Translations under genes and position numbers: made by a program | Assembly: GCA_026129685.1 (NCBI GenBank) | Contig: JAHCHO010000006.1 | Span: 186,001-250,000, forward strand | DNA from: Fimbriimonadaceae bacterium | GTDB lineage: Bacteria; Armatimonadota; Fimbriimonadia; Fimbriimonadales; Fimbriimonadaceae | Direction of reading: 5' to 3' | DNA length: 64,000 nt | Notes under the pieces: generated by a model | Told to the model about the DNA's origin: nothing | What the model saw: only the letters and a program-made list of their open reading frames with translations | The model's database searches: none | Shown here: piece after piece, positions 31,482 through 57,879 of the stretch | Layout of the letters: the number at the start of each line of letters is the position of its first letter | How positions within the stretch are numbered: the first letter of the stretch is position 1

Positions 31482-32753
31482 ATGAGGGTCGCGAGCGTGG
31501 GTGCCCCAAGCTTCACCGGCGAAGCGGGACGTTGGACGGAGTTGGCGGATGTTCGGGTGGATTTGGCGACGCCGATGCTGGGCGGGGGTTCCCGGGCGGG
31601 CCATCCCGACCTGGATCAGCCGTTTCGCCCGAGTGCGATTCGCGGGGCTTTGCGACGTTGGTGGCGGGCGACCAACGTCTTCGCCAGTCCGGCGGACCTG
31701 CGGAGCCGGGAACGCGCCCTCTGGGGGATGGCGGACGCGGAAGGCCCTTCGTCGAGCCTTGTGCGGGTCGAGGTCGATCAAACGTCTTCCAGCGAACTCC
31801 GCATCCTGCGCGACGCGGGCAACCTCGTCCCGGATTACGCGAAGGGCATCCTGATCGAACCGAGGACGGGCATCCGCGCCGTATCCGACGAGCATGCGAT
31901 CCGCATCCTCCCCACCGGCTCGTTTCGGCTGGTCGTTTCGGTTCGGTCCGATCGGTTCGCGACCGACGACTCGCCCGCGATAACCGGGGCGCAGAAGAGC
32001 GAGGTCCTTCGCGCCCTCGCCGCGTGGCTGCTCTTCGGCGGCATCGGAGCGCGGACCCGGCGCGGGTTCGGGGCGCTTCGGTGGGAGGGCTTCGGCGCGC
32101 AAGCCCACCTCACCGGGCTGGCGGGTCCGCAGAACCCGAACTTCCTGGTCAGCGGCTTCACTTCGTTGGTCGGCGCCTGGCTCTTCCTGAAGAGCGCTCA
32201 GGATTCGAACCGGGCCTGGCACCAGGCGATCGAGACCCTCCGCGATTTCCGCAAGGGCCAGGTGGGGGCTCAGCGGCAGGGGCACGGTCCAAACAGCCAC
32301 TCGCCCTGGCCGGAGGCCGACTCGATTAGGCAGGCCCAAGGCGTACCCACGCTCCGGCCCCTTCCCAGACAGACTTTTCCGCGCGCGGAGTTGGGGCTCC
32401 CCCTCCAGTTTCGGAGCGCGCGACCGGGCAGACAGAACAACTTCGGGCCCATCGCGGGCGAGTTCGTCGAGAGTTGGGTGCCGACGACCAACGGGCAAAC
32501 GCGTTTGGCCTCGCCGGTACTCGTCAAGCCGATCCTGTGGAACGGCCAATGGTGGGCGGGGCTGGTCCTCCTAACCCGGGGTCGCATCCGTCGACCGGGT
32601 CTCACAACCGACGCGAGAGGCTATCCGGACAATCTGCTCGGAGTTCCCGGGTACGCGGGGGCAAGACAACCAAAGGACGACATCCTGGACGTGCTGAGAT
32701 TCATGCTCGGACAACCGACGCTCTATGGATACACGGCGGTGACGCTGCCGTGA
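31482..32753 (+). CDS. cmr1: Type III-B CRISPR RAMP protein Cmr1
   Basis: 423 residues. RAMP hallmarks: the first beta strand leading to ATPMLGGG, the helix FRPSAIRGALRRWWRA and the Gly-rich loop FGGIGARTRRGFGAL typical of Cmr1. It caps the target-RNA 3' end of the Cmr complex. The ATG at 31482 is supported by the leaderless promoter; a GTG five codons in is the alternative. First gene of six; it overlaps cmr2 by 4 bases. Confidence 0.92.
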   Translation: MRVASVGAPSFTGEAGRWTELADVRVDLATPMLGGGSRAGHPDLDQPFRPSAIRGALRRWWRATNVFASPADLRSRERALWGMADAEGPSSSLVRVEVDQTSSSELRILRDAGNLVPDYAKGILIEPRTGIRAVSDEHAIRILPTGSFRLVVSVRSDRFATDDSPAITGAQKSEVLRALAAWLLFGGIGARTRRGFGALRWEGFGAQAHLTGLAGPQNPNFLVSGFTSLVGAWLFLKSAQDSNRAWHQAIETLRDFRKGQVGAQRQGHGPNSHSPWPEADSIRQAQGVPTLRPLPRQTFPRAELGLPLQFRSARPGRQNNFGPIAGEFVESWVPTTNGQTRLASPVLVKPILWNGQWWAGLVLLTRGRIRRPGLTTDARGYPDNLLGVPGYAGARQPKDDILDVLRFMLGQPTLYGYTAVTLP

Positions 32754-34381
32754 AGTACCTCGTGCAAATCTCGCTCGGGCCGGTGCAGGGGTTCATCGCC
32801 GCGAGCCGCAAGACGCGGGACCTGGCGGTCGGGTCGGCCCTCCTCGCCAAACTGTCGCAGGTGGCGGCAGAGGAGTTGGGGCGTCAGGGCGCGAGCCTGA
32901 TTTTCCCGCCGGACGCGAGTCAACCGGCGGCGAACATCCTTCTCGCGACGCTCGAAAGCGACCCGAAATCGGCGGCGGAAGGCGCAAAGGCGAAGGTGCT
33001 CGCCCGGTTGAAGGAAGAGGTCGCCACAGGGGCCAGGGATGCCGGCGTCCTCGTCGATCCCTCGGCGGACCTGACCGAGCAGGCCGAAAAGCTCCTCGAG
33101 TGGTTCGCCGCCTGGGCGCCGATCACGAACGACGACTTTGCGGCGGCGCGGAAGCGCGTCGGCGCGCTCATGGCCGGGCGCAAAGCGACGCGCGACTTCC
33201 CTCCCGCGCCGGCGGACGACGGCCGGCCGAAGAGCCCACTCGATCCCTCGTTCCCGGGCGTGCTGCGGGTCGACGGTCGAACCTACCAAGTCCGCACGGA
33301 GACCGACGTTCGGGTCAAACCCCGCGAGCACCTGGACGCGGTTGGGCTCGTGAAGCGGTTCGGAACGTTCGAGGGCGTCGCCAAACGGTACGCCTCGACG
33401 CGCGAAATCGCGGTCGGCATGGGCGCCCTCAGCCCGGAAGAGACCAACCCGTTACTGGAGTTGGAGAGAATGCTGAAGGGGCACGAGGGTCTCTGCGACG
33501 TGGACGAGGCCCTTTTTGGCGAGACCGACGGCTTGCCCCCGGAACTCAAGGCACAGGTCGACGCGGAGGTGAAAGCGATCCGATTCGACCGCAAGCCAAG
33601 GCCCTACTACTGCGTCCTTCACGGCGACGGCGACGCGATGGGCAAGTTGCTGGACCACTTGTCCCAACAAGGCGAAACCGCGTTGCGGGGTTTCAGCGTC
33701 GCGCTGAGCGGGTTCGCCAGCAAAGTGCACGGCATCGTGACGCAGCATCACGGCGTGTGCGTCTACGCGGGCGGCGACGACGTGGTGGCCCTCGCGCCGA
33801 TGGACACGGCGGTGGAACTGGCGAAGGCGGTTCAACAAGCCTTCGACGCGACGATGAAGACGTGGGCCGACGGGTTGACGCCCAAGCCGGACCTGCTGCC
33901 CACCTTTACGATGGGCGTCGCGGCGGTCCACGTGATGGACAACCTGCAGGAGTCGGTGAAGTTCGCCCAACTGCTCGAAAAGCGGGGCAAGAAGGAGGAC
34001 TTTGGAGACAACAGGAAGAAGAACGCGCTCGTCGTCGGGGCCAAGCCCCGGTCCGGCGGCGAAGTTTGCGTGGCGGGACGGTGGGACGATCAGTTCGCCG
34101 ACCGCTTCGTCGCCCACCGGGAGCACCTCAGAGAAGGCCGGCTACCGCGCGGCTTCCCCTACGAGATGCGGGCACTCGCCCAGGAACTGACGGACTTTGC
34201 CAAGGAGCCCACGATGGTGGCGATGGCCGACGAACTGGCCGCCATGGAGGTCGCGCGCATCCTGCGCAAGAAGCAAGCCGACCGGGACTACGCGCCACCG
34301 CCGATCGCTTCGGTGGCGGAACTCCGGCGCTATGCGGACATGCTCCTCGTGGCGCACTTCTTCACCCGGGAGGGCGAATGA
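32750..34381 (+). CDS. cmr2: Cas10/Cmr2, cyclic-oligoadenylate synthase subunit without HD domain
   Basis: 543 residues, GTG start overlapping cmr1 (GTGA). It begins directly with the Cmr2 N-terminal ferredoxin-like motif KYLVQISLGPVQGFIAASRK. There is no HD nuclease domain, which makes it much shorter than the roughly 850-residue archetype. Both palm regions are present: LHGDGDAMGKLL near residue 290 and the catalytic VYAGGDDVVAL with GGDD at 341-344. It should therefore make cyclic oligoadenylate on target-RNA binding but not cleave ssDNA through HD. Confidence 0.92.
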   Translation: MKYLVQISLGPVQGFIAASRKTRDLAVGSALLAKLSQVAAEELGRQGASLIFPPDASQPAANILLATLESDPKSAAEGAKAKVLARLKEEVATGARDAGVLVDPSADLTEQAEKLLEWFAAWAPITNDDFAAARKRVGALMAGRKATRDFPPAPADDGRPKSPLDPSFPGVLRVDGRTYQVRTETDVRVKPREHLDAVGLVKRFGTFEGVAKRYASTREIAVGMGALSPEETNPLLELERMLKGHEGLCDVDEALFGETDGLPPELKAQVDAEVKAIRFDRKPRPYYCVLHGDGDAMGKLLDHLSQQGETALRGFSVALSGFASKVHGIVTQHHGVCVYAGGDDVVALAPMDTAVELAKAVQQAFDATMKTWADGLTPKPDLLPTFTMGVAAVHVMDNLQESVKFAQLLEKRGKKEDFGDNRKKNALVVGAKPRSGGEVCVAGRWDDQFADRFVAHREHLREGRLPRGFPYEMRALAQELTDFAKEPTMVAMADELAAMEVARILRKKQADRDYAPPPIASVAELRRYADMLLVAHFFTREGE

Positions 34382-35496
34382 ACCACTACACGATTCAGCC
34401 GCTGGACCCGCTCGTCTTGGGCGACGGACGGCCGTTCAGCACCGATCCGGGTGCGCTGGCGGCGGGCGGGCTCTTGTTGCCGATGCCGAGCACCTTGGCC
34501 GGCGCGGTCCGTACCGCGATAGGACGCGCTCAGACCCCGCCGGATTGGGCGACCCTGCGCACGGTGCCCGTCCACGGGCCGCTGTTCACGGCGAACGGCA
34601 CCGTCCGCGTCCCCATGCCGGCGGACGCGGTCCTGATGTCGGAAGGCGACGAACTCCGCCTCGCGCGCGCCCGACCCACCGAGTTGGGCGACGGTGAGGG
34701 GACGGACCTACCGGAAGGCCTGACGCCGGTCGGACTGCCCTCTGGGACGAATGAACTCGAACCCAGCAAGCACGACCCGCCCCGGTGGATGAGCCTCGAC
34801 CAACTGGCCGCCTGGTACGCCGATGGGAAGTTGTTCGACACCGAGGGGCAATACGGAGTCTGGAAGGTCCCCCTCAAGGACGGCAAGCCGCCGTGGGACG
34901 ACGACTCGGCCGTCCATATCGAGAAGGACCTGCGCGTGCACGTCGGCATCAGCCACGCGACGCAAGCCGCCGAGAAGGGCATGCTGTACCAGACCACCGG
35001 AGCGGCCTACCGGCAAGGTCAGGCGCTGTTGGTCCGCACGGATGGCTCGGTGCCGTCCGGGGCGATGCCGCTCGGGGGCGAGCGTCGGCTTGGGTGCCTT
35101 TCCGAAGGCGGCGCGAACGCTTGGACATGCCCCGACGGGGTCCGGGAAGGGCTGAAGACCGCCACCAAAGTCGCCATGGTTCTCGCGACGCCCGCCGTCT
35201 TCGAACTTGGGTTCGGGCCGCAGGACCTCCCGAACACCCTTAACGCGACGGTCGCTCTGGTTGCCGCCGCGATGTCGCGCCGCGAGGCGGTCTCCGGCTG
35301 GGACCTCGCCAAGGGCGGCCCGAAGCCCGTCCGCTGGCTGGCGCCCGCCGGCTCCGTCTACTGGCTCGAGATCCCAAGCGGTGAGGGCGAGAAACTCGCC
35401 GATCGCTGGCTCCAACCCGTGTCCGACCATCCCGACGATCGTCGGGACGGCTTCGGCCTCGCCGTCTTCTTTCCGACCACCTGGGGAACGCACTGA
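34378..35496 (+). CDS. cmr3: Type III-B CRISPR protein Cmr3
   Basis: 372 residues, ATGA overlap with cmr2. The Cas5-like RAMP start IQPLDPLVLGDGRPF, the loop LPMPSTLAGAVRTAIG and the family-specific HVGISHATQAAEKGMLYQT are visible. It binds the crRNA 5' tag and contacts Cas10. The end overlaps the cmr4 ATG by one base. Confidence 0.92.
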   Translation: MNHYTIQPLDPLVLGDGRPFSTDPGALAAGGLLLPMPSTLAGAVRTAIGRAQTPPDWATLRTVPVHGPLFTANGTVRVPMPADAVLMSEGDELRLARARPTELGDGEGTDLPEGLTPVGLPSGTNELEPSKHDPPRWMSLDQLAAWYADGKLFDTEGQYGVWKVPLKDGKPPWDDDSAVHIEKDLRVHVGISHATQAAEKGMLYQTTGAAYRQGQALLVRTDGSVPSGAMPLGGERRLGCLSEGGANAWTCPDGVREGLKTATKVAMVLATPAVFELGFGPQDLPNTLNATVALVAAAMSRREAVSGWDLAKGGPKPVRWLAPAGSVYWLEIPSGEGEKLADRWLQPVSDHPDDRRDGFGLAVFFPTTWGTH

Positions 35497-36368
35497 TGCA
35501 CCACCGAATCTTGACCCTACGAACGATCACACCGCTTCACGTCGGCACCGGCCAGTCGGTCGGCACCACGGACCTTCCGATCGCCCGCGAGAGAACGACC
35601 GGCTGGCCGATGGTGCCCGGCTCGAGCGTCAAGGGCGCGCTCAAGGAGGTGGCTCGCGAGGGGCGAGTCACTAGCCGCGACAAAGCGTCAGGCGACCAGG
35701 CGGACAAGGACCTCGCTTACCTGTTCGGGTCGCCGGACAGCAGGAACGCGGCGGCGGGCGCCCTGGCGATCACCGACCTCCGGTGCCTGCTGTTTCCGGT
35801 ACGGTCGGTGGCGGGGACTTTTGCCTACGCGACCTCAAGCGGTGCCATCCAGCGTGCCAACGAGCTCCTGGCGGCGGCGGGCAAGGCGACGGTTGGCGTG
35901 GAAGCCGCACCTGACGGGACCGCCATCGTCTCGGCGACGACGGTTCTGAAGGTGGCGACGCTCGGCAGGGTGGTCCTGGAGGACCTCGACCTCACGCCCC
36001 GGGACCTAGGCGGAGCCGACCCGACAAGCCGTCTCGCCGCGCTGACCGGCATCGCCGAAGCCGAGTTGGGCAAGCGCCTCGCGGTGTTGCCCGACGATAT
36101 CTTCACCTACCTGACGAAGACGGCCACCGAGGTCACAACCCACGTGACGCTCGACTTCGTGACCCGAACGGCCTCCCCCGGGATGCTCCGGAGCGAGGAA
36201 CGGGTCCCCTCGGAAGCGATGTTTCTCGGACTGGCCATGGTGGACGGGCTGTCCAAAGACAAGGACAAGGCGACTCAACACCTTGACGCGTTGAACGGCA
36301 AGTACTGCCAGTTCGGCGGCAAGGGCAGCGTCGGCAACGGCCTCTGCCGCGTGGGGGTGACCTCGTGA
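35496..36368 (+). CDS. cmr4: Type III-B CRISPR backbone RNase Cmr4
   Basis: 290 residues. Cas7-type RAMP: TPLHVGTGQSVGTTDLPIARE, GWPMVPGSSVKGALKE and the C-terminal YCQFGGKGSVGNGLCRV. Asp26 matches the position of the catalytic Asp that cleaves target RNA every six bases in characterised Cmr4 proteins, so RNA cleavage is expected. Overlaps cmr5 by 4 bases. Confidence 0.93.
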   Translation: MHHRILTLRTITPLHVGTGQSVGTTDLPIARERTTGWPMVPGSSVKGALKEVAREGRVTSRDKASGDQADKDLAYLFGSPDSRNAAAGALAITDLRCLLFPVRSVAGTFAYATSSGAIQRANELLAAAGKATVGVEAAPDGTAIVSATTVLKVATLGRVVLEDLDLTPRDLGGADPTSRLAALTGIAEAELGKRLAVLPDDIFTYLTKTATEVTTHVTLDFVTRTASPGMLRSEERVPSEAMFLGLAMVDGLSKDKDKATQHLDALNGKYCQFGGKGSVGNGLCRVGVTS

Positions 36369-36724
36369 GGACGGTGGACCAGAAACTGCTCGAATGGGCG
36401 CACAAGTCGGTGAACGATGCGATCGGCAACTCCGACTGCAAGCGCAAAGAGTTCAAGACGGCGGTCAAGGGGGCGCCCGCCTTCGTGCAGGGATGCGGCC
36501 TCGCCCAAGCGGTGGCCTTCTGGCGGGCCAAAAAGGGCGAGATGGGTCGGATGCTGACCTACCTGGAAGGCGCACCTGAGCTTACGAATCTTGCGGAGCG
36601 GGCGCGAACCAAGGGGCTCGAGGAGTACGCGTTCCTGACCTTGCGAACCCAGCACGCCCTCGTCTTCCTCAAGCGGATGGTGGACGCCCACATCGAGGGG
36701 GAGGAGGAAGCGAGGGACTCATGA
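36365..36724 (+). CDS. cmr5: Type III-B CRISPR small subunit Cmr5
   Basis: 119 residues, GTG start, all-alpha. VQGCGLAQAVAFWRAKKG and the closing helix LRTQHALVFLKRMVDAH are the Cmr5 pattern. It lines the inner face of the complex with Cas10. Four-base overlaps on both sides. Confidence 0.88.
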   Translation: MRTVDQKLLEWAHKSVNDAIGNSDCKRKEFKTAVKGAPAFVQGCGLAQAVAFWRAKKGEMGRMLTYLEGAPELTNLAERARTKGLEEYAFLTLRTQHALVFLKRMVDAHIEGEEEARDS

Positions 36725-37740
36725 GAACGTGTCTGAAGGCCCTGGTTGAGGCGGGACAACTCGACCAGCCTGGTCTATTGATCGAGCGCTTCTTCCCGAT
36801 CGGCGATAAGAACGAAGACGAGAAGGCGAGGTTCCGCTATCGGGTCGCTTCAGCGGGGGCTCCCGAAGCGTATCGAAGCGCGTACACACGCTGGAACCAG
36901 GCTCTTGCGGAGGCGTCCTTCTGGACCTTCGAGGCGACCCTCAAGACCCGGCTCACGATCGGCCTCGGCGTCGCCAACCCGAGCGAAAACGGGATCGCGC
37001 TCCAACGCACCTTTGGCGTGCCCGTCATCCCCGGCTCGACGATCAAGGGCGCGCTCCGGTCGTGCGCGTTCGAGTTGTGCGGGTTGCACGACAACGTCAA
37101 GCCCCAGTGGAAGCGGGAAGAGGCGCCCGTAGCGGCCCGGCCGGCCCTCGAGGTCTTTGGCGCGGCGGACGCGATGGCGGCCGTGACCTGTTTCGACGCC
37201 TGGTGGGTCCCGACCGGGAAGCCGTTCTGCGTCGAGACGTGGACGCCTCACCACCAGAAGTATATGACCCAGGGGGCGGACCTGCCGCTCGAGTCCGACG
37301 ATCCGAACCCGATCGGCCTGTTCGCGGTGCCCAAGGGGGCCAAGTTCCGGTTCGCCTTCCAGGTTCCCGATCCGCAAGCCGAGTGGATCGCCGCCCTCGC
37401 AGATGTGGTCCGATTGGCGCTCGAGCGTGGGTTGGGCGCAAAGCACTCTCAAGGGTACGGCCGGTTCACGGTTCCGGAACTGGTCCCGGGCGGGCCGGTC
37501 CGAGATGATCGCGGACAAAGGCCCCAAGAGGTCGTCGTCCTGACGGACGGCCAACACCATGTTGCGGGCATGTTCCGCGTGCGCGGAAAAAGCCGCGAGG
37601 TGGAGTTTCCGGGGGGCCAAACTCGACCCGTTCTCGATCCGCCGAACCTGGAAGATGGGACCCCCGTCACCGTGCGCGTGAACGTCACCAAAGGCCAGAT
37701 CCAACGCGAGATTCAGGGAAAAAACGTGCGGCCCCGGTAG
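36721..37740 (+). CDS. cmr6: Type III-B CRISPR RAMP protein Cmr6
   Basis: 339 residues. FGVPVIPGSTIKGALRSCA and GLGAKHSQGYGRF are diagnostic of Cmr6. A C-terminal extension of about 80 residues (after VPELVPGG) has an OB-like strand pattern (VTVRVNVTKGQIQREIQGK), larger than usual and of unknown role. Last gene of the operon; tRNA-Pro lies 28 bases downstream on the opposite strand. Confidence 0.92.
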   Translation: MRTCLKALVEAGQLDQPGLLIERFFPIGDKNEDEKARFRYRVASAGAPEAYRSAYTRWNQALAEASFWTFEATLKTRLTIGLGVANPSENGIALQRTFGVPVIPGSTIKGALRSCAFELCGLHDNVKPQWKREEAPVAARPALEVFGAADAMAAVTCFDAWWVPTGKPFCVETWTPHHQKYMTQGADLPLESDDPNPIGLFAVPKGAKFRFAFQVPDPQAEWIAALADVVRLALERGLGAKHSQGYGRFTVPELVPGGPVRDDRGQRPQEVVVLTDGQHHVAGMFRVRGKSREVEFPGGQTRPVLDPPNLEDGTPVTVRVNVTKGQIQREIQGKNVRPR

Positions 37741-51660: not shown

Positions 51661-52398
51661 CTATAGCGCTTGCCCCAGATCCTGGGTCACGGCGTGATCG
51701 TCCGGAACGGTCGTCGGCACCCGGGCGAGACGTTCGCGAAGGGCAGCGGACTCGTCGGCGATCTTCGTCTCGAGCCTGTCGGTGAGCGCGCGGGCGGCTT
51801 TGTGGTTCATGCGTAGCATCGCCCGGAAGCCGATCGCACCGGTGGCCAGAAGGCACGCGGCGACGCCAAGGCCCTGAGCGACAAGGCCCCTCTCCCCCAT
51901 GGCGCTCGCCGCGATGACGCTGCCGATAATCGCCGGATACAGGCTCACGAAGAAGGCGACAAAGGCGTTCGACTTCACGCTCAAGCGGGTCCGGCCATTG
52001 CGCGAGGCGACGGCGATGCTCGCCATACCCCACCCGGTATAGGTGTTCCCTTTCAGCATCCGACCGATCTGCATCACCTGGCTGTTGCGCCCTCCGGTAT
52101 GGAGGTGCTCCATCACCACGTCAAAGTCCTCAGGAGCAAGTTCGCCCTCTATAACGCGTTCGAAGGTCTCGGTGAAGTGAAGGAGGCCGCGATGGCTGAC
52201 GGGCGCGTTGCCCTCGCGGACGGCCTGATCGAGAAACCGCGAGTCGATGCCCGCCTCTTCGGCAATGCGGCGCAACTCGTCGTAGGTGATGCCGGGGACG
52301 TAGCCCCGCCCTTCCGACGCCGACTCCTGCAGGTGGACCGCCCGTTGGACGATCTGGGCCGCTTCCTGTTCGCTGAAGACCTTCTTGGGACCGTCCAT
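51661..52398 (-). CDS. Two-helix membrane protein of unknown function
   Basis: 245 residues. The N-terminal cytoplasmic segment EAAQIVQRAVHLQESA...GITYDELRRIAEEAGIDSRFLDQAV is a recurring SHOCT-like helical module in predicted membrane regulators. Two central helices (AFVAFFVSLYPAIIGSVIAA, LVAQGLGVAACLLATGAI) are followed by a C-terminal coiled coil. Function unknown. It borders the prophage remnant. Confidence 0.65.
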   Translation of the reverse strand: MDGPKKVFSEQEAAQIVQRAVHLQESASEGRGYVPGITYDELRRIAEEAGIDSRFLDQAVREGNAPVSHRGLLHFTETFERVIEGELAPEDFDVVMEHLHTGGRNSQVMQIGRMLKGNTYTGWGMASIAVASRNGRTRLSVKSNAFVAFFVSLYPAIIGSVIAASAMGERGLVAQGLGVAACLLATGAIGFRAMLRMNHKAARALTDRLETKIADESAALRERLARVPTTVPDDHAVTQDLGQAL

Positions 52399-52455: not shown

Positions 52456-52586
52456 GTGGGGACGTCGGTGACGAACCGGGCGACGGGGACGGAGATCAAG
52501 ATCTCCGGCTACGCCGTCAAGAAGAAGACCGAAGGCCCCAAATCCAAGTCGCCCTGCTTCTGGCGATTCAGCCCATTCTGTCCGAG
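52456..52586 (+). pseudogene. Left edge of the prophage remnant: 3' fragment of a protease copy
   Basis: Reads GTSVTNRATGTEIKISGYAV, then shifts frame near 52545 into VALLLAIQPILSEM. This matches the order TNRPYIKRMPPIDKK...PLLLAMEPILAEM found intact at about 53270-53380, so it is the decayed tail of a further copy of the duplicated phage protease region. No start codon. Confidence 0.5.
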
Positions 52587-53952
52587 ATGGTTCCGTTCGG
52601 CGAACCAGTTCCGGACAAGAAGAACAGGCCGAACGTGAAGGCGTTCCACTACTACACGCTTCCCCTGCTCGCGTCGGGCGTGGAAGACACGCTCGTGGTG
52701 CAGGTGCGAGAAGATTTGAACGGCCACCTGTTCTACGACTGGGGTCTGGACGACACAAAGACCCGCCAGGCTCCGGTGCTTGGGCGCGTGGCCCCAGACG
52801 GTCCGGTCGTTGGCCTTGGCGGGCCTCTGGAGAAGATCATAGCCCAACTCACGGAAGACTGGACCCCGCCACGGCCCAAAGTCTTCTTTCTCTCGTCGCT
52901 CGGCGCGTCGAAGGACCTGTACCGGGCGCAAGTCCTGCGCTGCGGGCACTGGGACTACCCCGGTTTCGAGGGCGGGTTCGAGGGGACCCCGACGGTGCTC
53001 CGCGAGATGAAGGCGCACTTCGACGACGGCGCCAAGGGGTACGAGGTGCCGTTGAACGTGGAGCACGACGACGAGCGTCCGGCCGGTTGGGTGAAGGGCG
53101 TCGAGTTGACGCCGGACGGCACGGCGCTGTTCGCGCTGTTCGAGATCACGGACGGGGACGCGCGGCGCCGGGTGGAGGAAGGGAGCCTGGCGTACGTGTC
53201 GAGCGAGCTCGACTTCGCCTGGTTCGACCCGGAGGACAAGCGCGAGAAGAAGGTCTTCGAAGGGCTGGCGCTCACGAACCGCCCCTATATCAAGCGGATG
53301 CCCCCGATCGACAAGAAGGAGTTCGGCGCTCCCGCCACGGTTCCGCTGTTGCTCGCGATGGAGCCGATCCTGGCGGAGATGACTCTCCTCAAGTCGGAAC
53401 CGGATCGCATGGGTCGCCACGGAGTCAAGGCGTTCCACTATTACGCGCTTCCCCTGCTCGCGTCGGGCGTGGAAGACGCGCTCGTGGTGCAGGTGCGAGA
53501 AGACCAGAACGGTCACCTCTTCTACGACTGGGGCTTGGACAACGCTAAGGCCCAGCTGGCTCCGGCGCATGACCCCGAGGGGTTCAGACGACCCGGTTTG
53601 GCCAGTGGGCCTATGGAGAAGATCATAGCCCAACTCACGGAGGACTGGACCCCGCCCCGGCCCAAAGTCTTCTTTCTCTCGGCGCTCGGCGCGTCGACGA
53701 AGGACATGTACCGGGCGCACGTTCTGCGCTGCGGTCACTGGGACTACCCCGGTTTCGAGGGCGGCTTCGAGGTGACGCCGGCGGTGCTTCGCGAGATGGC
53801 GGCGCACTTCGACGACGGCGCCAAGGGGTACGAGGTGCCGTTGAACGTGGAGCACGACGACGAGCGGCCGGCGGGTTGGGTGAAGGGCGTCGAGTTGACG
53901 CCGGACGGCACGTCGCTGTTTGCGCGGTTCGGGATCACGGACGGGGACGCGG
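52587..53952 (+). pseudogene. Rearranged Mu-like phage protease region, tandemly duplicated
   Basis: One open frame containing two copies of a unit of about 789 bp. Each copy has a PBECR-like module (KAFHYYTLPLLASGVED, NGHLFYDWGLD), then a phage Mu gpI-type prohead protease (DDGAKGYEVPLNVEHDDERP, AGWVKGVELTPDG, SLAYVSSELDFAWFDPEDK only in copy 1). Copy 2 stops at FGITDGDA, where it jumps at about 53952 into portal sequence in another frame. The protease would mature phage heads; here it is fused and truncated, so it is a remnant. The open frame continues past the junction only as an out-of-frame shadow. Confidence 0.7.
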
Positions 53953-54981
53953 GTAACAACCGGTCCCGACGGGCAGGTGGTGCCGGACAAGGCGTCGAGC
54001 CAGACGGCGGAGACGGGGACGTACAACCTGGGGGAGACGCAGATCGAGCTGTTCCTGGAGAACGCGGAGGCGATCCTGGACGATCTGAAGGGCGCGATCG
54101 AGGAGCAGGTGCTGCGGGACTTCGTGGACTACAACTTCGGGGCTTCGGCGCCTCGTCTGGAGATCGTGTTCCAGCCGCTCGACGCGAAGATCAAGCGGAT
54201 GCTGCTCTCGGCGCTGATCGGTCTGCTGGCGCAGGGCCCGGTGGGTCTGGCGGACGGCCGGGAGGTGGAGGCGGACTGGGAGGGCCTGGCGAAGGACGCG
54301 GGGGTTCCGCTGACGGTCGTGGACGCGCGGGACCGGGCTCGACGGCTTGTGCAGGCGGCGCGGGAGCGCCTGGCGGGGCTGGGGGACGAGGGGGAGGCTC
54401 CGAAGGGGGCGGATCTCTCGGAGCGAGCGCGGCTGATCGGCGGCAACTGGCGAGAGGAGGACCATCCGCGCGCCGACGATGGGAAGTTCGGCGACGGGCC
54501 GGGCGGGGACGAAGCGAAGGACGACGCGCGCACTTACGAGCCGCGCATCGAGGAGCATCCGGAGTTCACGCCGGAGCACGTGGTGGACGGGGTGAACCCG
54601 ACGGGGTATGGGGTGTTCGGCCCACAGTACGGGTCGCTGAGCGGAGATGGGCACGCGGCGGTCGCCCACTTGGCGAAGACGAAGGGCGGAGAGGTGCCCG
54701 GGGCATTGTCCAACCCAGCGGTCGGCTCGATCGACTTGGTCTGGGGGAACGAACAAGCCGGTCTGTGCAAGATCATGCACAAGCACCCCGAGGTGATCAC
54801 GGAGCTGCCCGAGATTGTCGCAGTTCTCGAACCGATGAGGTCTGGACGAGACCGCGTTCAGTTGGGCGACGATCGCTACACCGCCGTCGTCAAGTTGGTC
54901 TATCGAGCAGGGGCCGAGGAGACCACCAAGACCTGGTTGCTGACCGCCTTTGAGGACACGAAGCGGACGGGCGGAAGCTGA
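53953..54981 (+). pseudogene. Phage portal C-terminal fragment with PBECR-type RNase toxin domain
   Basis: No start codon of its own; begins VTTGPDGQVVPDKASSQTAE. The first 150 codons (LGETQIELFLENAEAILDDL, RDFVDYNFGASAPRLEIVF) look like the C-terminal part of a DUF935-type portal. After an acidic linker, PTGYGVFGPQYGSL, GSIDLVWGNEQAGLCKIMHKHP and TWLLTAFED match the phage barnase/EndoU/colicin-like (PBECR) RNase modules carried at the ends of phage structural proteins. The N-terminal half of the portal is deleted. The domain itself looks intact. Confidence 0.65.
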
Positions 54982-55134
54982 ACGCGGACGACGGACCGGC
55001 GCTCTGTTTCGCGGAGCGAATCAAGGTGACGGACTCCTCACCTCGCCTCCGCCCATGAATCCAGTATACGACAAGGATCGTCGTTTTGGGTTCGGATGCG
55101 ACTTTCGCACCTTGCGGGCGCGTCTTTGGGCGCG

Positions 55135-55350
55135 ATGGTCACGCAAGCCGATCTCGACAACCGATTCGTCTATCACGCGCCGTTGCCGGGTCAAACGGAG
55201 CGCTACCGGTCCCTGCGGGATCAGGCCAAGAGCCTGGCGGAGGCGATCGTGGCGGGCACGCCCGAATCCCGCGAGCAGTCTCTGGCATTGACCAACCTCG
55301 AGCAGGCGATCATGTGGGCCAACGCGGCGATCGCGAGGAACGAGCGGTGA
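55135..55350 (+). CDS. acb2: Acb2/Tad1-family phage anti-defence protein (cyclic-oligonucleotide sponge)
   Basis: 71 residues from ATG 55135; an in-frame ATG at 55096 would add 13 residues. NRFVYHAPLPGQTERYRSLR, the central helix and the close SREQSLALTNLEQAIMWANA match the Acb2 (DUF7681) helical-hairpin family. Characterised members are hexamers that sequester cyclic di- and trinucleotides and block CBASS. The conserved NRFxYHxP...QxERYxxLR and ALTxLExAxMWANAxIAR residues are all present, so binding is plausible. It sits between phage structural remnants and overlaps the next gene by 4 bases. The family assignment is from memory of the motif, not a search. Confidence 0.75.
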   Translation: MVTQADLDNRFVYHAPLPGQTERYRSLRDQAKSLAEAIVAGTPESREQSLALTNLEQAIMWANAAIARNER

Positions 55351-55637
55351 GGCGACGCTGGGCTGCGGCGGTCGGGATGCTCGCCCTGGTGGCGGCGACG
55401 GCGGTGCTCTCGCAGGAGGCGCGGCGGGATCCGCCGCCGGTGCTACTGCGGAACTACGAGGAGGCGGCGCTGCACATGGACGCGCACGGGATCGAGGTCC
55501 ATCGGGTCGAGTGGTCGGGGCGTTGGCTGTACGTCGCGGGCGGGGTGGTGCTCGTTCGCGACGAGGACGGGGTCTCGCGTCCGTTCTCGCCCTCGGTGGG
55601 CGACCTGGGCCGGGTGTGGGTCGGAGGTCGCTCGTAA
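55347..55637 (+). CDS. Small secreted phage-associated protein, unknown
   Basis: 96 residues, GTG start overlapping the acb2-like stop (GTGA). Signal-peptide-like N-terminus WAAAVGMLALVAATAVLSQ; the rest is a compact beta domain (VEWSGRWLYVAGGVVLVRDED). Stop codon is immediately followed by the next phage gene's ATG. Could be envelope-targeted; no family recognised. Confidence 0.6.
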   Translation: MRRRWAAAVGMLALVAATAVLSQEARRDPPPVLLRNYEEAALHMDAHGIEVHRVEWSGRWLYVAGGVVLVRDEDGVSRPFSPSVGDLGRVWVGGRS

Positions 55638-55928
55638 ATGGCCAACGCCCTGTACGACAAGGCACGGGAGTCCTTCCTGAAGGGGGAGATCTCCTGGAGC
55701 GGGGACAACGTGAAGGTCGTGCTCCTGGACCTGGCGGACTACGCGCCGGACCTGGCGAACGACCAGTACCTTTCGGACATCCCGGCGGGGGCGCGGGCGG
55801 CGACGAGCGGGAACCTCTCGGGCAAGACGACTTCGGCGGGGGTGGCGGACGCGGACAACGTCACGTTCGCCACGGTGACGGGGGACCCGAGCGAGGGCTT
55901 CAGGCGTCGGGGTAGATCTCGCGGGTGA
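55638..55928 (+). pseudogene. Phage structural protein truncated at dnaA
   Basis: 96 codons, but only about the first 86 are phage-like: MANALYDKARESFLKGEISW, VKVVLLDLADYAPDLAND, YLSDIPAGARA. This is the start of a common phage tail or head protein. After FATVTGDPSEG the frame runs into the antisense of the dnaA 3' end (55900), giving a nonsense tail. The break marks the right boundary of the prophage remnant. Confidence 0.75.
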
Positions 55929-57273
55929 GACGCTGGATCGAGTCCCTCAGTTCTTGGTCGGCGGCGATCATCTCGTTCGCCCGCTGGAAGCTGTGCATGA
56001 CCGAGGTGTGGTCGCGGTTACCGAACCGGCGGCCGATCTGCTTCCAACTGTCGCCGGTGATCTTCCGCATAAGATAGACGGCCATGTGGCGAGCGTGGGC
56101 GATTGGGGCCTTGCGACTCGGGCCGACGATCTCGTCGTAAGGGATACCGTAGTAGCGGCTCACAGCGGCGACGATCTGCTCGATGCCCGGTTTCTGCGAT
56201 CCGTTGCGGTAGTCGCGCTCGATAACCTGGTGCGCGAGGTCGAGGTCGACGATGGCGCCATCGAGGCTCGCATGGGCGACGATCTTGGTGAGGGCGCCCT
56301 CCAGAGTGCGGATGTTGCCGGGGACGACCTCGGCCAGGTACATCGCCACGGCCGGCTCGAGGAGGATGCCCTCGCGCTCGGCCTTCTTCAGGACGATCGC
56401 GCAACGAGTTTCGGTGTCGGGCGGCTGGATGTCGGCGAGGAGGCCGGCCTCGAACCGCGACTTTAGGCGCTCGTCCAGGCCGTACAACTCGCGCGGAGGC
56501 TGGTCGCTCGTGATGACGATCTGCTTGCCGTGGACCTGGAGGTAGTTGAACATGTGGAACACCTCCTCTTGGGTCTTGGCCTTACCGACGATGAACTGGA
56601 CGTCATCGAGCAACCAGACGGCGAGGCCTTTGATCGCCTTGCGAAACTGCTCGGTACGGTTAGCCTGGAGCGACTGGACGAACGACTCGACGAACTGCTG
56701 GGCGGACACGTACTGGATGGGCATCGCCGGGTGGTTCTGCCGGATTTCCCGCGCGATCGCGTGCAAGAGGTGGGTTTTGCCAACGCCCGACACCCCATAG
56801 ATGAAGAGGGGGTTGTACTTCGATCCGGGCTCCTCGGCGACGGCGCGCGCGCCGGCGAGGGCGAGGCGGTTGCTCTGCCCCTTGACGAACGAGTCGAAGG
56901 TGTAGCGCTCGTCCAGGACGAAGGCGGGCGACGGTTCGGCTTCGGGGGCGGCAAGGGTCACCGTTTCGGACTTGGCGGCGGCCTTCTTATCGCGGGTTTC
57001 GCTGACGAACTCGATCTTAACGGTCTCGCCAAGTTCGTCGGAGAGCATGGCGGCCATCGTGTTGCCGTACTTCTCGCGAACCCAGTCGGCGACGAAACGA
57101 CCGGGGGACTCGAACGAGGCGACGCCGTCGTCGAGGGCTCGGGGCTTGAGGGGACGGATGAAGCGGGCCAGCCAAGCGGGCGGGAGGTCGGGCGCGATGC
57201 GACGAACCACCTGTTCCCATGCGGCTCGCAATCGGATGCGATCTTGCGGGTCTTCGAGGCTGTATTGGTCCAT
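55900..57273 (-). CDS. dnaA: Chromosomal replication initiator DnaA
   Basis: 457 residues from ATG 57273, chosen because it starts the conserved domain I (WEQVVRRIAPDLPPAWLARFI). AAA+ domain: Walker A YGVSGVGKTHLLHAIA, Walker B VWLLDDVQFI and sensor regions. Domain IV ends with GRRFGNRDHTSVMHSFQRA, the DnaA-box-binding signature. It opens the replication origin. dnaN is not adjacent; neighbours are a CBS gene upstream and the phage remnant directly at its stop codon. A G11 tract (+ strand) lies 65 bases before the start. Confidence 0.96.
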   Translation of the reverse strand: MDQYSLEDPQDRIRLRAAWEQVVRRIAPDLPPAWLARFIRPLKPRALDDGVASFESPGRFVADWVREKYGNTMAAMLSDELGETVKIEFVSETRDKKAAAKSETVTLAAPEAEPSPAFVLDERYTFDSFVKGQSNRLALAGARAVAEEPGSKYNPLFIYGVSGVGKTHLLHAIAREIRQNHPAMPIQYVSAQQFVESFVQSLQANRTEQFRKAIKGLAVWLLDDVQFIVGKAKTQEEVFHMFNYLQVHGKQIVITSDQPPRELYGLDERLKSRFEAGLLADIQPPDTETRCAIVLKKAEREGILLEPAVAMYLAEVVPGNIRTLEGALTKIVAHASLDGAIVDLDLAHQVIERDYRNGSQKPGIEQIVAAVSRYYGIPYDEIVGPSRKAPIAHARHMAVYLMRKITGDSWKQIGRRFGNRDHTSVMHSFQRANEMIAADQELRDSIQRLTREIYPDA

Positions 57274-57337
57274 CGGCGCGTTCAGTCCAGGTTCAGTCAC
57301 GCTCTCCCAAGGGCAAACGATGCCGCCACCGAGCGGT

Positions 57338-57348
57338 GGGGGGGGGGG
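57338..57348. repeat. G11 homopolymer upstream of dnaA
   Basis: Eleven G on the + strand (C11 in the dnaA-sense strand), immediately beside a small hairpin CCACC-GAGC-GGTGG. It lies in the dnaA leader or promoter region. Confidence 0.7.
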
Positions 57349-57486
57349 ATGAGAGCGACGTCTATAAGATAGCCCTTTTCGTGGGGCGTCGGGAGGAATA
57401 TTTGGGGCGATTATCGTTCGTCGGTACGGGCGGCTACCGAGGGGTAGACGACCGTTCGCCCATCGGCATCGCAGTACACTCGGGGG

Positions 57487-57879
57487 GTGACACTGCGCGA
57501 AGTGATGCATGCGCACCTGCCCACGCTCACGCGCCACAGCACGGTTCGGGACGCGGTGGACAAGATGGACATCTACCAGTTTCCAGCCCTAGTGGTGGTC
57601 GGCGACGACATGGAGCCGATCGGGGTGGTGACGGAGGGGGACCTGTGCCGCGCGGCCTTCGACCGAGGGAACGCGACGACGATGGCGGGGGAGCCGGCGA
57701 GCAAGTTCGGCACGACGGGACCCACGACGATGGGGCTCGACGCGGAGATTGGGGACGCTTTCCACCGCATGCTTATGAGCGGCCTGACGATTCTGCCGGT
57801 GGTGGACGGCGGTCGCTTGGCGGGGGTCGTTCTGCGGGTGGATCTGATGCAGGCGATGATGATGGACATCGCGCAGTAG
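57487..57879 (+). CDS. Tandem CBS-domain protein
   Basis: 130 residues, GTG start; two CBS motifs only: MTLREVMHAHLPTLTRHSTV with VVTEGDLCRAAFD, then SGLTILPVVDGGRLAGVVLRVDLM. It likely senses adenine nucleotides and regulates a partner. TACACT at 57475-57480 lies 6 bases before the GTG, so a leaderless mRNA is predicted. Divergent from dnaA. Confidence 0.82.
   Translation: MTLREVMHAHLPTLTRHSTVRDAVDKMDIYQFPALVVVGDDMEPIGVVTEGDLCRAAFDRGNATTMAGEPASKFGTTGPTTMGLDAEIGDAFHRMLMSGLTILPVVDGGRLAGVVLRVDLMQAMMMDIAQ

What the first reader, a model, noticed from the sequence alone, without database searches (positions are those of the whole stretch)
55135..55350. Acb2-like cyclic-nucleotide sponge in a prophage remnant of a host with a cOA-competent Cmr system
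The 71-residue protein keeps the conserved residues of the Acb2/Tad1 helical-hairpin family, whose studied members sequester cyclic di- and trinucleotides against CBASS. The same chromosome encodes a Cas10 with intact GGDD 20 kb away, which should make cyclic oligoadenylates. A retained sponge in an otherwise broken prophage could now tune the host's own signalling, or be a relic of a phage countering an unseen CBASS or type III effector. This family in a probable Armatimonadota genome appears unusual.
Basis: partly seen in the sequence, partly recalled or inferred. Interest (0 to 1): 0.8.

Follow-up and report, generated by a model that had tools for sequence, protein, structure and literature searches.

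The report
Phage anti-CBASS sponge gene in remnant
A short stretch of dead phage DNA next to the chromosome's dnaA gene still carries an intact gene for a small phage protein of a known family that soaks up bacterial alarm molecules, and the same genome has the kind of alarm system (CBASS) that this family is known to defeat.

Summary
The 71-aa ORF at 55135-55350 (+) matches Pfam PF24729 (Acb2/Tad1 hairpin) at 62 bits (cut-off 27; E 5e-17), a score like those of the proven Acb2 proteins of phages T4 (71) and PaMx33 (66). It also matches PHROG 1454, still listed as 'unknown function'. AlphaFold2 gives the expected short helix plus two-helix hairpin (pLDDT 97). The known cyclic-dinucleotide tyrosine (T4 Y8) and its basic partner are kept as Y13/R28, and R46/T53 align with PaMx33 R67/T74. 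The gene lies in a 3.4-kb Mu-like phage remnant cut off at the 3' end of dnaA. Homologues occur in 227 phage records.

The host does encode a CBASS operon on another contig: CD-NTase related to cAAG synthases, E2, and TIR-SAVED effector, predicted to signal with a cyclic trinucleotide. The simplest account is an ordinary phage anti-CBASS sponge left in a decayed prophage. Nothing here supports host use. Sponge activity and expression are untested. It is a new member of a known kind.

The parts
55135..55350 (+). acb2-like gene, 71 aa, intact; N-terminal helix 4-11, hairpin helices 20-41 and 46-69; putative ligand residues Y13, R28, R46, T53
55347..55637 (+). 96-aa ORF overlapping the acb2 stop by 4 nt (GTGA), hydrophobic N-terminus, no family match
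55638..55898 (+). PHROG 644 phage gene, truncated (profile 4-94 of 174) at the dnaA 3' end
53920..54981 (+). C-terminal fragment of Mu-type portal (PF06074 positions 244-309 of 336) fused to a PBECR1 nuclease-like domain
52587..53951 (+). Head-maturation-protease/LPD3 ORF, present as two tandem copies about 789 nt apart, second copy truncated
52456..55899 (.). Approximate extent of the phage remnant, between a host gene (51661-52398, -) and dnaA; not matched in same-genus genomes
55900..57537 (-). dnaA; its stop codon marks the right edge of the remnant
   Evidence: TIGR00362, 458 bits
32750..34381 (+). cas10/cmr2, GGDD intact, no HD domain found; part of cmr1-cmr6 operon 31482-37740

Best explanation
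The gene encodes an Acb2-family cyclic-oligonucleotide sponge from a Mu-like phage that infected this lineage. In its phage it would assemble (by analogy, as a hexamer), bind cyclic di- and/or trinucleotides made by the host's CBASS cyclase, and so keep the effector (here a TIR-SAVED NADase) from being switched on. The phage has since been reduced to a 3.4-kb remnant against dnaA. The acb2 ORF is still intact but is most likely a leftover that is not, or hardly, expressed. Shown here: family membership, predicted monomer fold, conserved residues, phage surroundings, and a CBASS operon in the same genome. Inferred: hexamer, ligand binding, anti-CBASS activity, which nucleotide, and lack of host use.
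For: PF24729 62 bits, E 5e-17, with T4 Vs.4/Acb2 71 bits and PaMx33 Acb2 66 bits on the same model. AF2 model pLDDT 96.8 with helices 4-11, 20-41, 46-69, the layout described for Acb2 (PMC12043709). T4 Vs.4 (7uq2, Z 6.5) and Acb2 (8h2x 6.4, 8h2j 6.3) are at or near the top of the structural comparison. Y13 and R28 sit at the same 15-residue spacing as T4 Y8/K23 and PaMx33 Y11/K26; R46 and T53 match PaMx33 R67/T74; Y13, R28 and R46 are invariant in the 19-sequence alignment. T4 Acb2 Y8A loses dinucleotide binding (PMC12657218). Homologues in 227 phage records and 19 IMG/VR loci; beside portal or terminase genes in Gordonia phage ChisanaKitsune and in prophage genes of a same-family genome. Host CBASS: CD-NTase, E2 and TIR-SAVED in overlapping order; TIR-SAVED is activated by cA3 (PMC10419184), and Acb2 binds cA3 and cAAG more tightly than dinucleotides (PMC12043709).
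Against: No binding or expression data. Sequence similarity to the experimentally tested Acb2 proteins is remote (profile of close relatives: T4 15.5 bits, PaMx33 1.6 bits). A two-helix hairpin is a common shape: unrelated helical proteins reach the same Z, and Foldseek E-values are above 0.4. Three other acb2-carrying genomes of the phylum have no CD-NTase hit, so co-occurrence with CBASS is no statistical argument (22 of 291 genomes have one).
Confidence: 0.75

Rival explanations
1. The sponge has been kept by the host after prophage decay and damps its own CBASS or type III signalling (a domesticated buffer).
For: The ORF is intact with all 9 invariant and 4 nearly invariant family columns kept while its neighbours are truncated; the host encodes CBASS and type III signalling genes.
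Against: Remnant absent from the two same-genus genomes held; no Shine-Dalgarno-like sequence or sigma-70-like promoter seen, though several host genes also lack the former; short genes survive neutral decay by chance; no close orthologue was found for a dN/dS test.
Confidence: 0.07
2. The main target of the sponge is cyclic oligoadenylate made by type III-B (Cmr) CRISPR, as the title implies.
For: Two Cmr loci with intact GGDD Cas10 in the genome; a Csx1-type CARF-HEPN effector; a review notes that Acb2 capture of cA3 could affect type III immunity (PMC12043709).
Against: Csx1-type effectors usually use cA4 (general knowledge), a larger ring than reported Acb2 ligands; no cA3-type effector was identified beside the window's Cmr genes; the CBASS effector present is of the cA3-responsive TIR-SAVED type.
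Confidence: 0.08
3. A family member with the same hairpin but another ligand (for example gcADPR, as in Tad1) or no nucleotide ligand.
For: The best PDB sequence hits of the single sequence are Tad1 proteins through the shared SRE...ALTxxEEALMW helix; most of this PHROG is uncharacterised.
Against: Lacks Tad1's N-terminal beta domain (71 aa, all helical model); retains the Acb2 dinucleotide-site tyrosine and basic residue; profile match to a solved chain called 'Acb2 homolog 43' (9ptq, E 2e-8).
Confidence: 0.1

Closest known systems
Acb2 of phages PaMx33 and T4 (Vs.4), Pfam PF24729
   Same: Same Pfam domain over its full length with similar scores, short helix plus two-helix hairpin, tyrosine and basic residue at the same 15-residue spacing
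   Different: Shorter (71 vs 88-93 aa): the loop between the two long helices lacks the roughly 20-residue insertion of T4/PaMx33; K to R at the basic position; direct sequence similarity very low
'Acb2 homolog 43' (PDB 9ptq)
   Same: Closest solved chain by profile (E 1.8e-8); shares the compact hairpin and RE-S...T-LE-A motif
   Different: Low identity; lacks the tyrosine of the FxYH motif in the aligned stretch (reads FDTH)
PHROG 1454 / uncharacterised homologues in Paenibacillus, Gordonia and Mycobacterium phages
   Same: Up to about 66-70% identity to the nearest members, same length, same SREQSLALTNLEQAIMWANAAIARNE block
   Different: Those lie in complete phages or larger viral contigs; this one in a remnant
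Tad1 (Thoeris anti-defence 1)
   Same: C-terminal hairpin helix motif
   Different: Tad1 has an added N-terminal beta domain that is absent here

Membership tests
Acb2 (PF24729) | Match to the curated Pfam profile above its cut-off | tested here: met
   62.2 bits against cut-off 27, positions 2-58 of 58
Acb2 (PF24729) | Short N-terminal helix plus two long antiparallel helices | tested here: met
   AF2 model, pLDDT 96.8, helices 4-11, 20-41, 46-69
Acb2 (PF24729) | Cyclic-dinucleotide site: tyrosine (T4 Y8/PaMx33 Y11) and basic residue 15 positions on | tested here: met
   Y13 and R28; role of T4 Y8 from PMC12657218; role of the basic residue from memory
Acb2 (PF24729) | Homo-hexamer | not testable with these tools
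   Only monomer prediction available
Acb2 (PF24729) | Binds cyclic di-/trinucleotides without cleaving them | not testable with these tools
   Needs ITC or gel-shift assays
Acb2 (PF24729) | Carried by phages or prophages | tested here: met
   227 phage records; phage genes on both sides in the window
Tad1 | N-terminal antiparallel beta domain before the hairpin | tested here: not met
   71 aa, no strand in the model
Type II CBASS (host operon, outside the window) | CD-NTase, E2-like protein and effector in one operon | tested here: met
   L044 8985-10046, 10036-10485, 10422-11627, overlapping genes

The most novel reading that the evidence does not exclude
After its prophage decayed, the host kept an expressed Acb2 as a buffer that sets the firing threshold of its own cyclic-trinucleotide CBASS (or Cmr) alarm, a domesticated viral sponge.
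Probability: 0.06. Interest if true: 0.75.

Novelty: new member of a known kind. Interest (0 to 1): 0.27.

Why it matters
It extends experimentally grounded annotation (cyclic-nucleotide sponge) to PHROG 1454, a widespread phage family still listed as unknown function, and gives a matched pair in one genome: a sponge gene and a CBASS operon whose predicted messenger is of the class that Acb2 binds best. As a biological claim it is ordinary phage counter-defence; only host domestication would be surprising.

Tried and rejected
Panoptes (mCpol, which would punish a sponge): only a sub-threshold hit, and that is a second Cas10. Thoeris STALD domain: no hit, but no positive control rang, so absence is not shown. 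Empty-site comparison: left gene and dnaA are not on the same contig in same-genus G141, so the insertion history could not be rebuilt. tblastx of the remnant against a second Mu-portal locus (C12) gave only compositional noise, and tblastn found none of the remnant's other genes in the acb2-bearing loci. The two protease copies differ with dN/dS about 0.42 (175 codons): some constraint, but it says nothing about acb2. Foldseek and VIA scores alone do not discriminate for a two-helix hairpin. Co-occurrence of acb2 and CBASS across the phylum: 1 of 4 carriers, not informative. Papers on the Acb2 binding-site mutants K26 and R67 were not in the library; those residue roles rest on memory.

Full report
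Observation. The ORF at 55135-55350 (+) is real, 71 codons without a stop. It matches Pfam PF24729, 'Acb2/Tad1, hairpin domain', at 62.2 bits over positions 2-58 of 58 (cut-off 27, E 5.2e-17) and PHROG 1454 at E 9e-25. It is the only place in the 3.94-Mb genome above the cut-off. On the same Pfam model the proven Acb2 proteins of T4 (Vs.4) and PaMx33 score 71.4 and 66.1 bits, so the annotation is about as firm as theirs.

Protein. In an alignment of 19 sequences, the window protein plus relatives from IMG/VR and from two genomes of the same bacterial family, the relatives share 33-66% identity with it; Y13, H14, P16, R28, P43, R46, E47, A51 and A62 are invariant. Aligned with PaMx33 and T4 Acb2, Y13 matches Y11/Y8 and R28 matches K26/K23 at an identical spacing of 15, and R46 and T53 match PaMx33 R67 and T74. 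Mutation of Y8 in T4 Acb2 disrupts dinucleotide binding (PMC12657218). That R67 belongs to the trinucleotide pocket is from memory, not tested here. The AF2 model (pLDDT 96.8) has helices 4-11, 20-41 and 46-69 and no strand, the published Acb2 layout (PMC12043709); Tad1's beta domain is missing. VIA-align puts T4 Vs.4 first (Z 6.5) and Acb2 chains at 6.3-6.4, but unrelated hairpins tie with them. The nearest solved chain by profile is 9ptq, 'Acb2 homolog 43' (E 1.8e-8).

Surroundings. Between a host gene (51661-52398, -) and dnaA (55900-57537, -; TIGR00362 458 bits) lie about 3.4 kb of phage DNA: two tandem copies of a head-maturation-protease/LPD3 ORF 789 nt apart, the second truncated; the C-terminal piece of a Mu portal fused to PBECR1; acb2; a 96-aa ORF overlapping the acb2 stop; and a PHROG 644 gene cut off where dnaA ends. 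In the two same-genus genomes held, this stretch matches only through its host flanks, the dnaA 3' end in both and a short left-flank stretch in one. The association with packaging genes recurs: in Gordonia phage ChisanaKitsune the homologue overlaps the portal gene, in genome G081 it lies beside a terminase gene with a portal of the same PHROG (113) close by, and in G157 it sits between a holin and a gene next to the terminase genes. Homologues also lie next to single-stranded-DNA-binding or ArpU-like genes in Paenibacillus phages, so the gene moves between phage modules. 227 phage records carry one.

Host signalling systems. The same genome has a CBASS operon on contig C13 (L044): a CD-NTase (SMODS; related to CD-NTase 9sa4 and to cAAG synthases such as 7d48), an E2 protein and a TIR-SAVED effector (relative of 7qqk). 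TIR-SAVED enzymes are activated by cA3 (PMC10419184), and Acb2 binds cA3 and cAAG more tightly than dinucleotides (PMC12043709). The Cmr operon of the window (31482-37740) has a Cas10 with GGDD and no HD domain detected, but no CARF gene or repeat array was found beside it. A Csx1-type CARF-HEPN protein lies on C12 and a second Cmr locus with cas1 and a reverse transcriptase on C11. Csx1 proteins usually answer to cA4 (general knowledge), so CBASS is the better match for the sponge.

Judgement. The most economical account is a standard phage anti-CBASS sponge preserved in a young or slowly decaying remnant. Host domestication is not excluded but has no positive support: no close orthologue was found, no sigma-70-like promoter or Shine-Dalgarno-like sequence was seen (the latter is also missing from several host genes), and the acb2 carriers in the phylum do not track CBASS. 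It is a new member of a known kind.

Noticed in passing
L044 8985-11627 (G000:C13:18985-21627): Host CBASS operon: CD-NTase, E2 and TIR-SAVED effector in overlapping genes.
   Followed up: partly
L080 6528-15491 (G000:C11:39528-48491): Second type III-B (Cmr) locus with GGDD Cas10, Cas1 and a nearby reverse transcriptase on the opposite strand, suggesting RNA spacer acquisition.
   Followed up: partly
L045 8329-9555 (-) (G000:C12): Csx1-type CARF-HEPN effector with no cas genes recognised in the few neighbours scanned.
   Followed up: partly
window 53920-54981: Mu-type portal C-terminus fused to a PBECR1 nuclease-like domain, with LPD3-bearing ORFs upstream: a polyvalent-protein type phage module.
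   Followed up: no
window 52635-53162 and 53424-53951: Tandem duplication of the head-maturation protease/LPD3 region, 85-96% identical DNA by block, dN/dS about 0.42.
   Followed up: partly
L074 13759-15348 (G000:C12:179759-181348): Nearly full Mu-type portal gene standing among what look like host genes, apparently an orphan phage gene.
   Followed up: partly
L076 3989-4204 and other Paenibacillus phage records: Acb2-family proteins deposited as 'phosphomannomutase' or 'putative phosphomannomutase', an evident misannotation.
   Followed up: no
window 31482-37740: Cmr operon with no Cas1/Cas2, CRISPR array or CARF gene recognised nearby; possibly relies on the C11 locus.
   Followed up: partly
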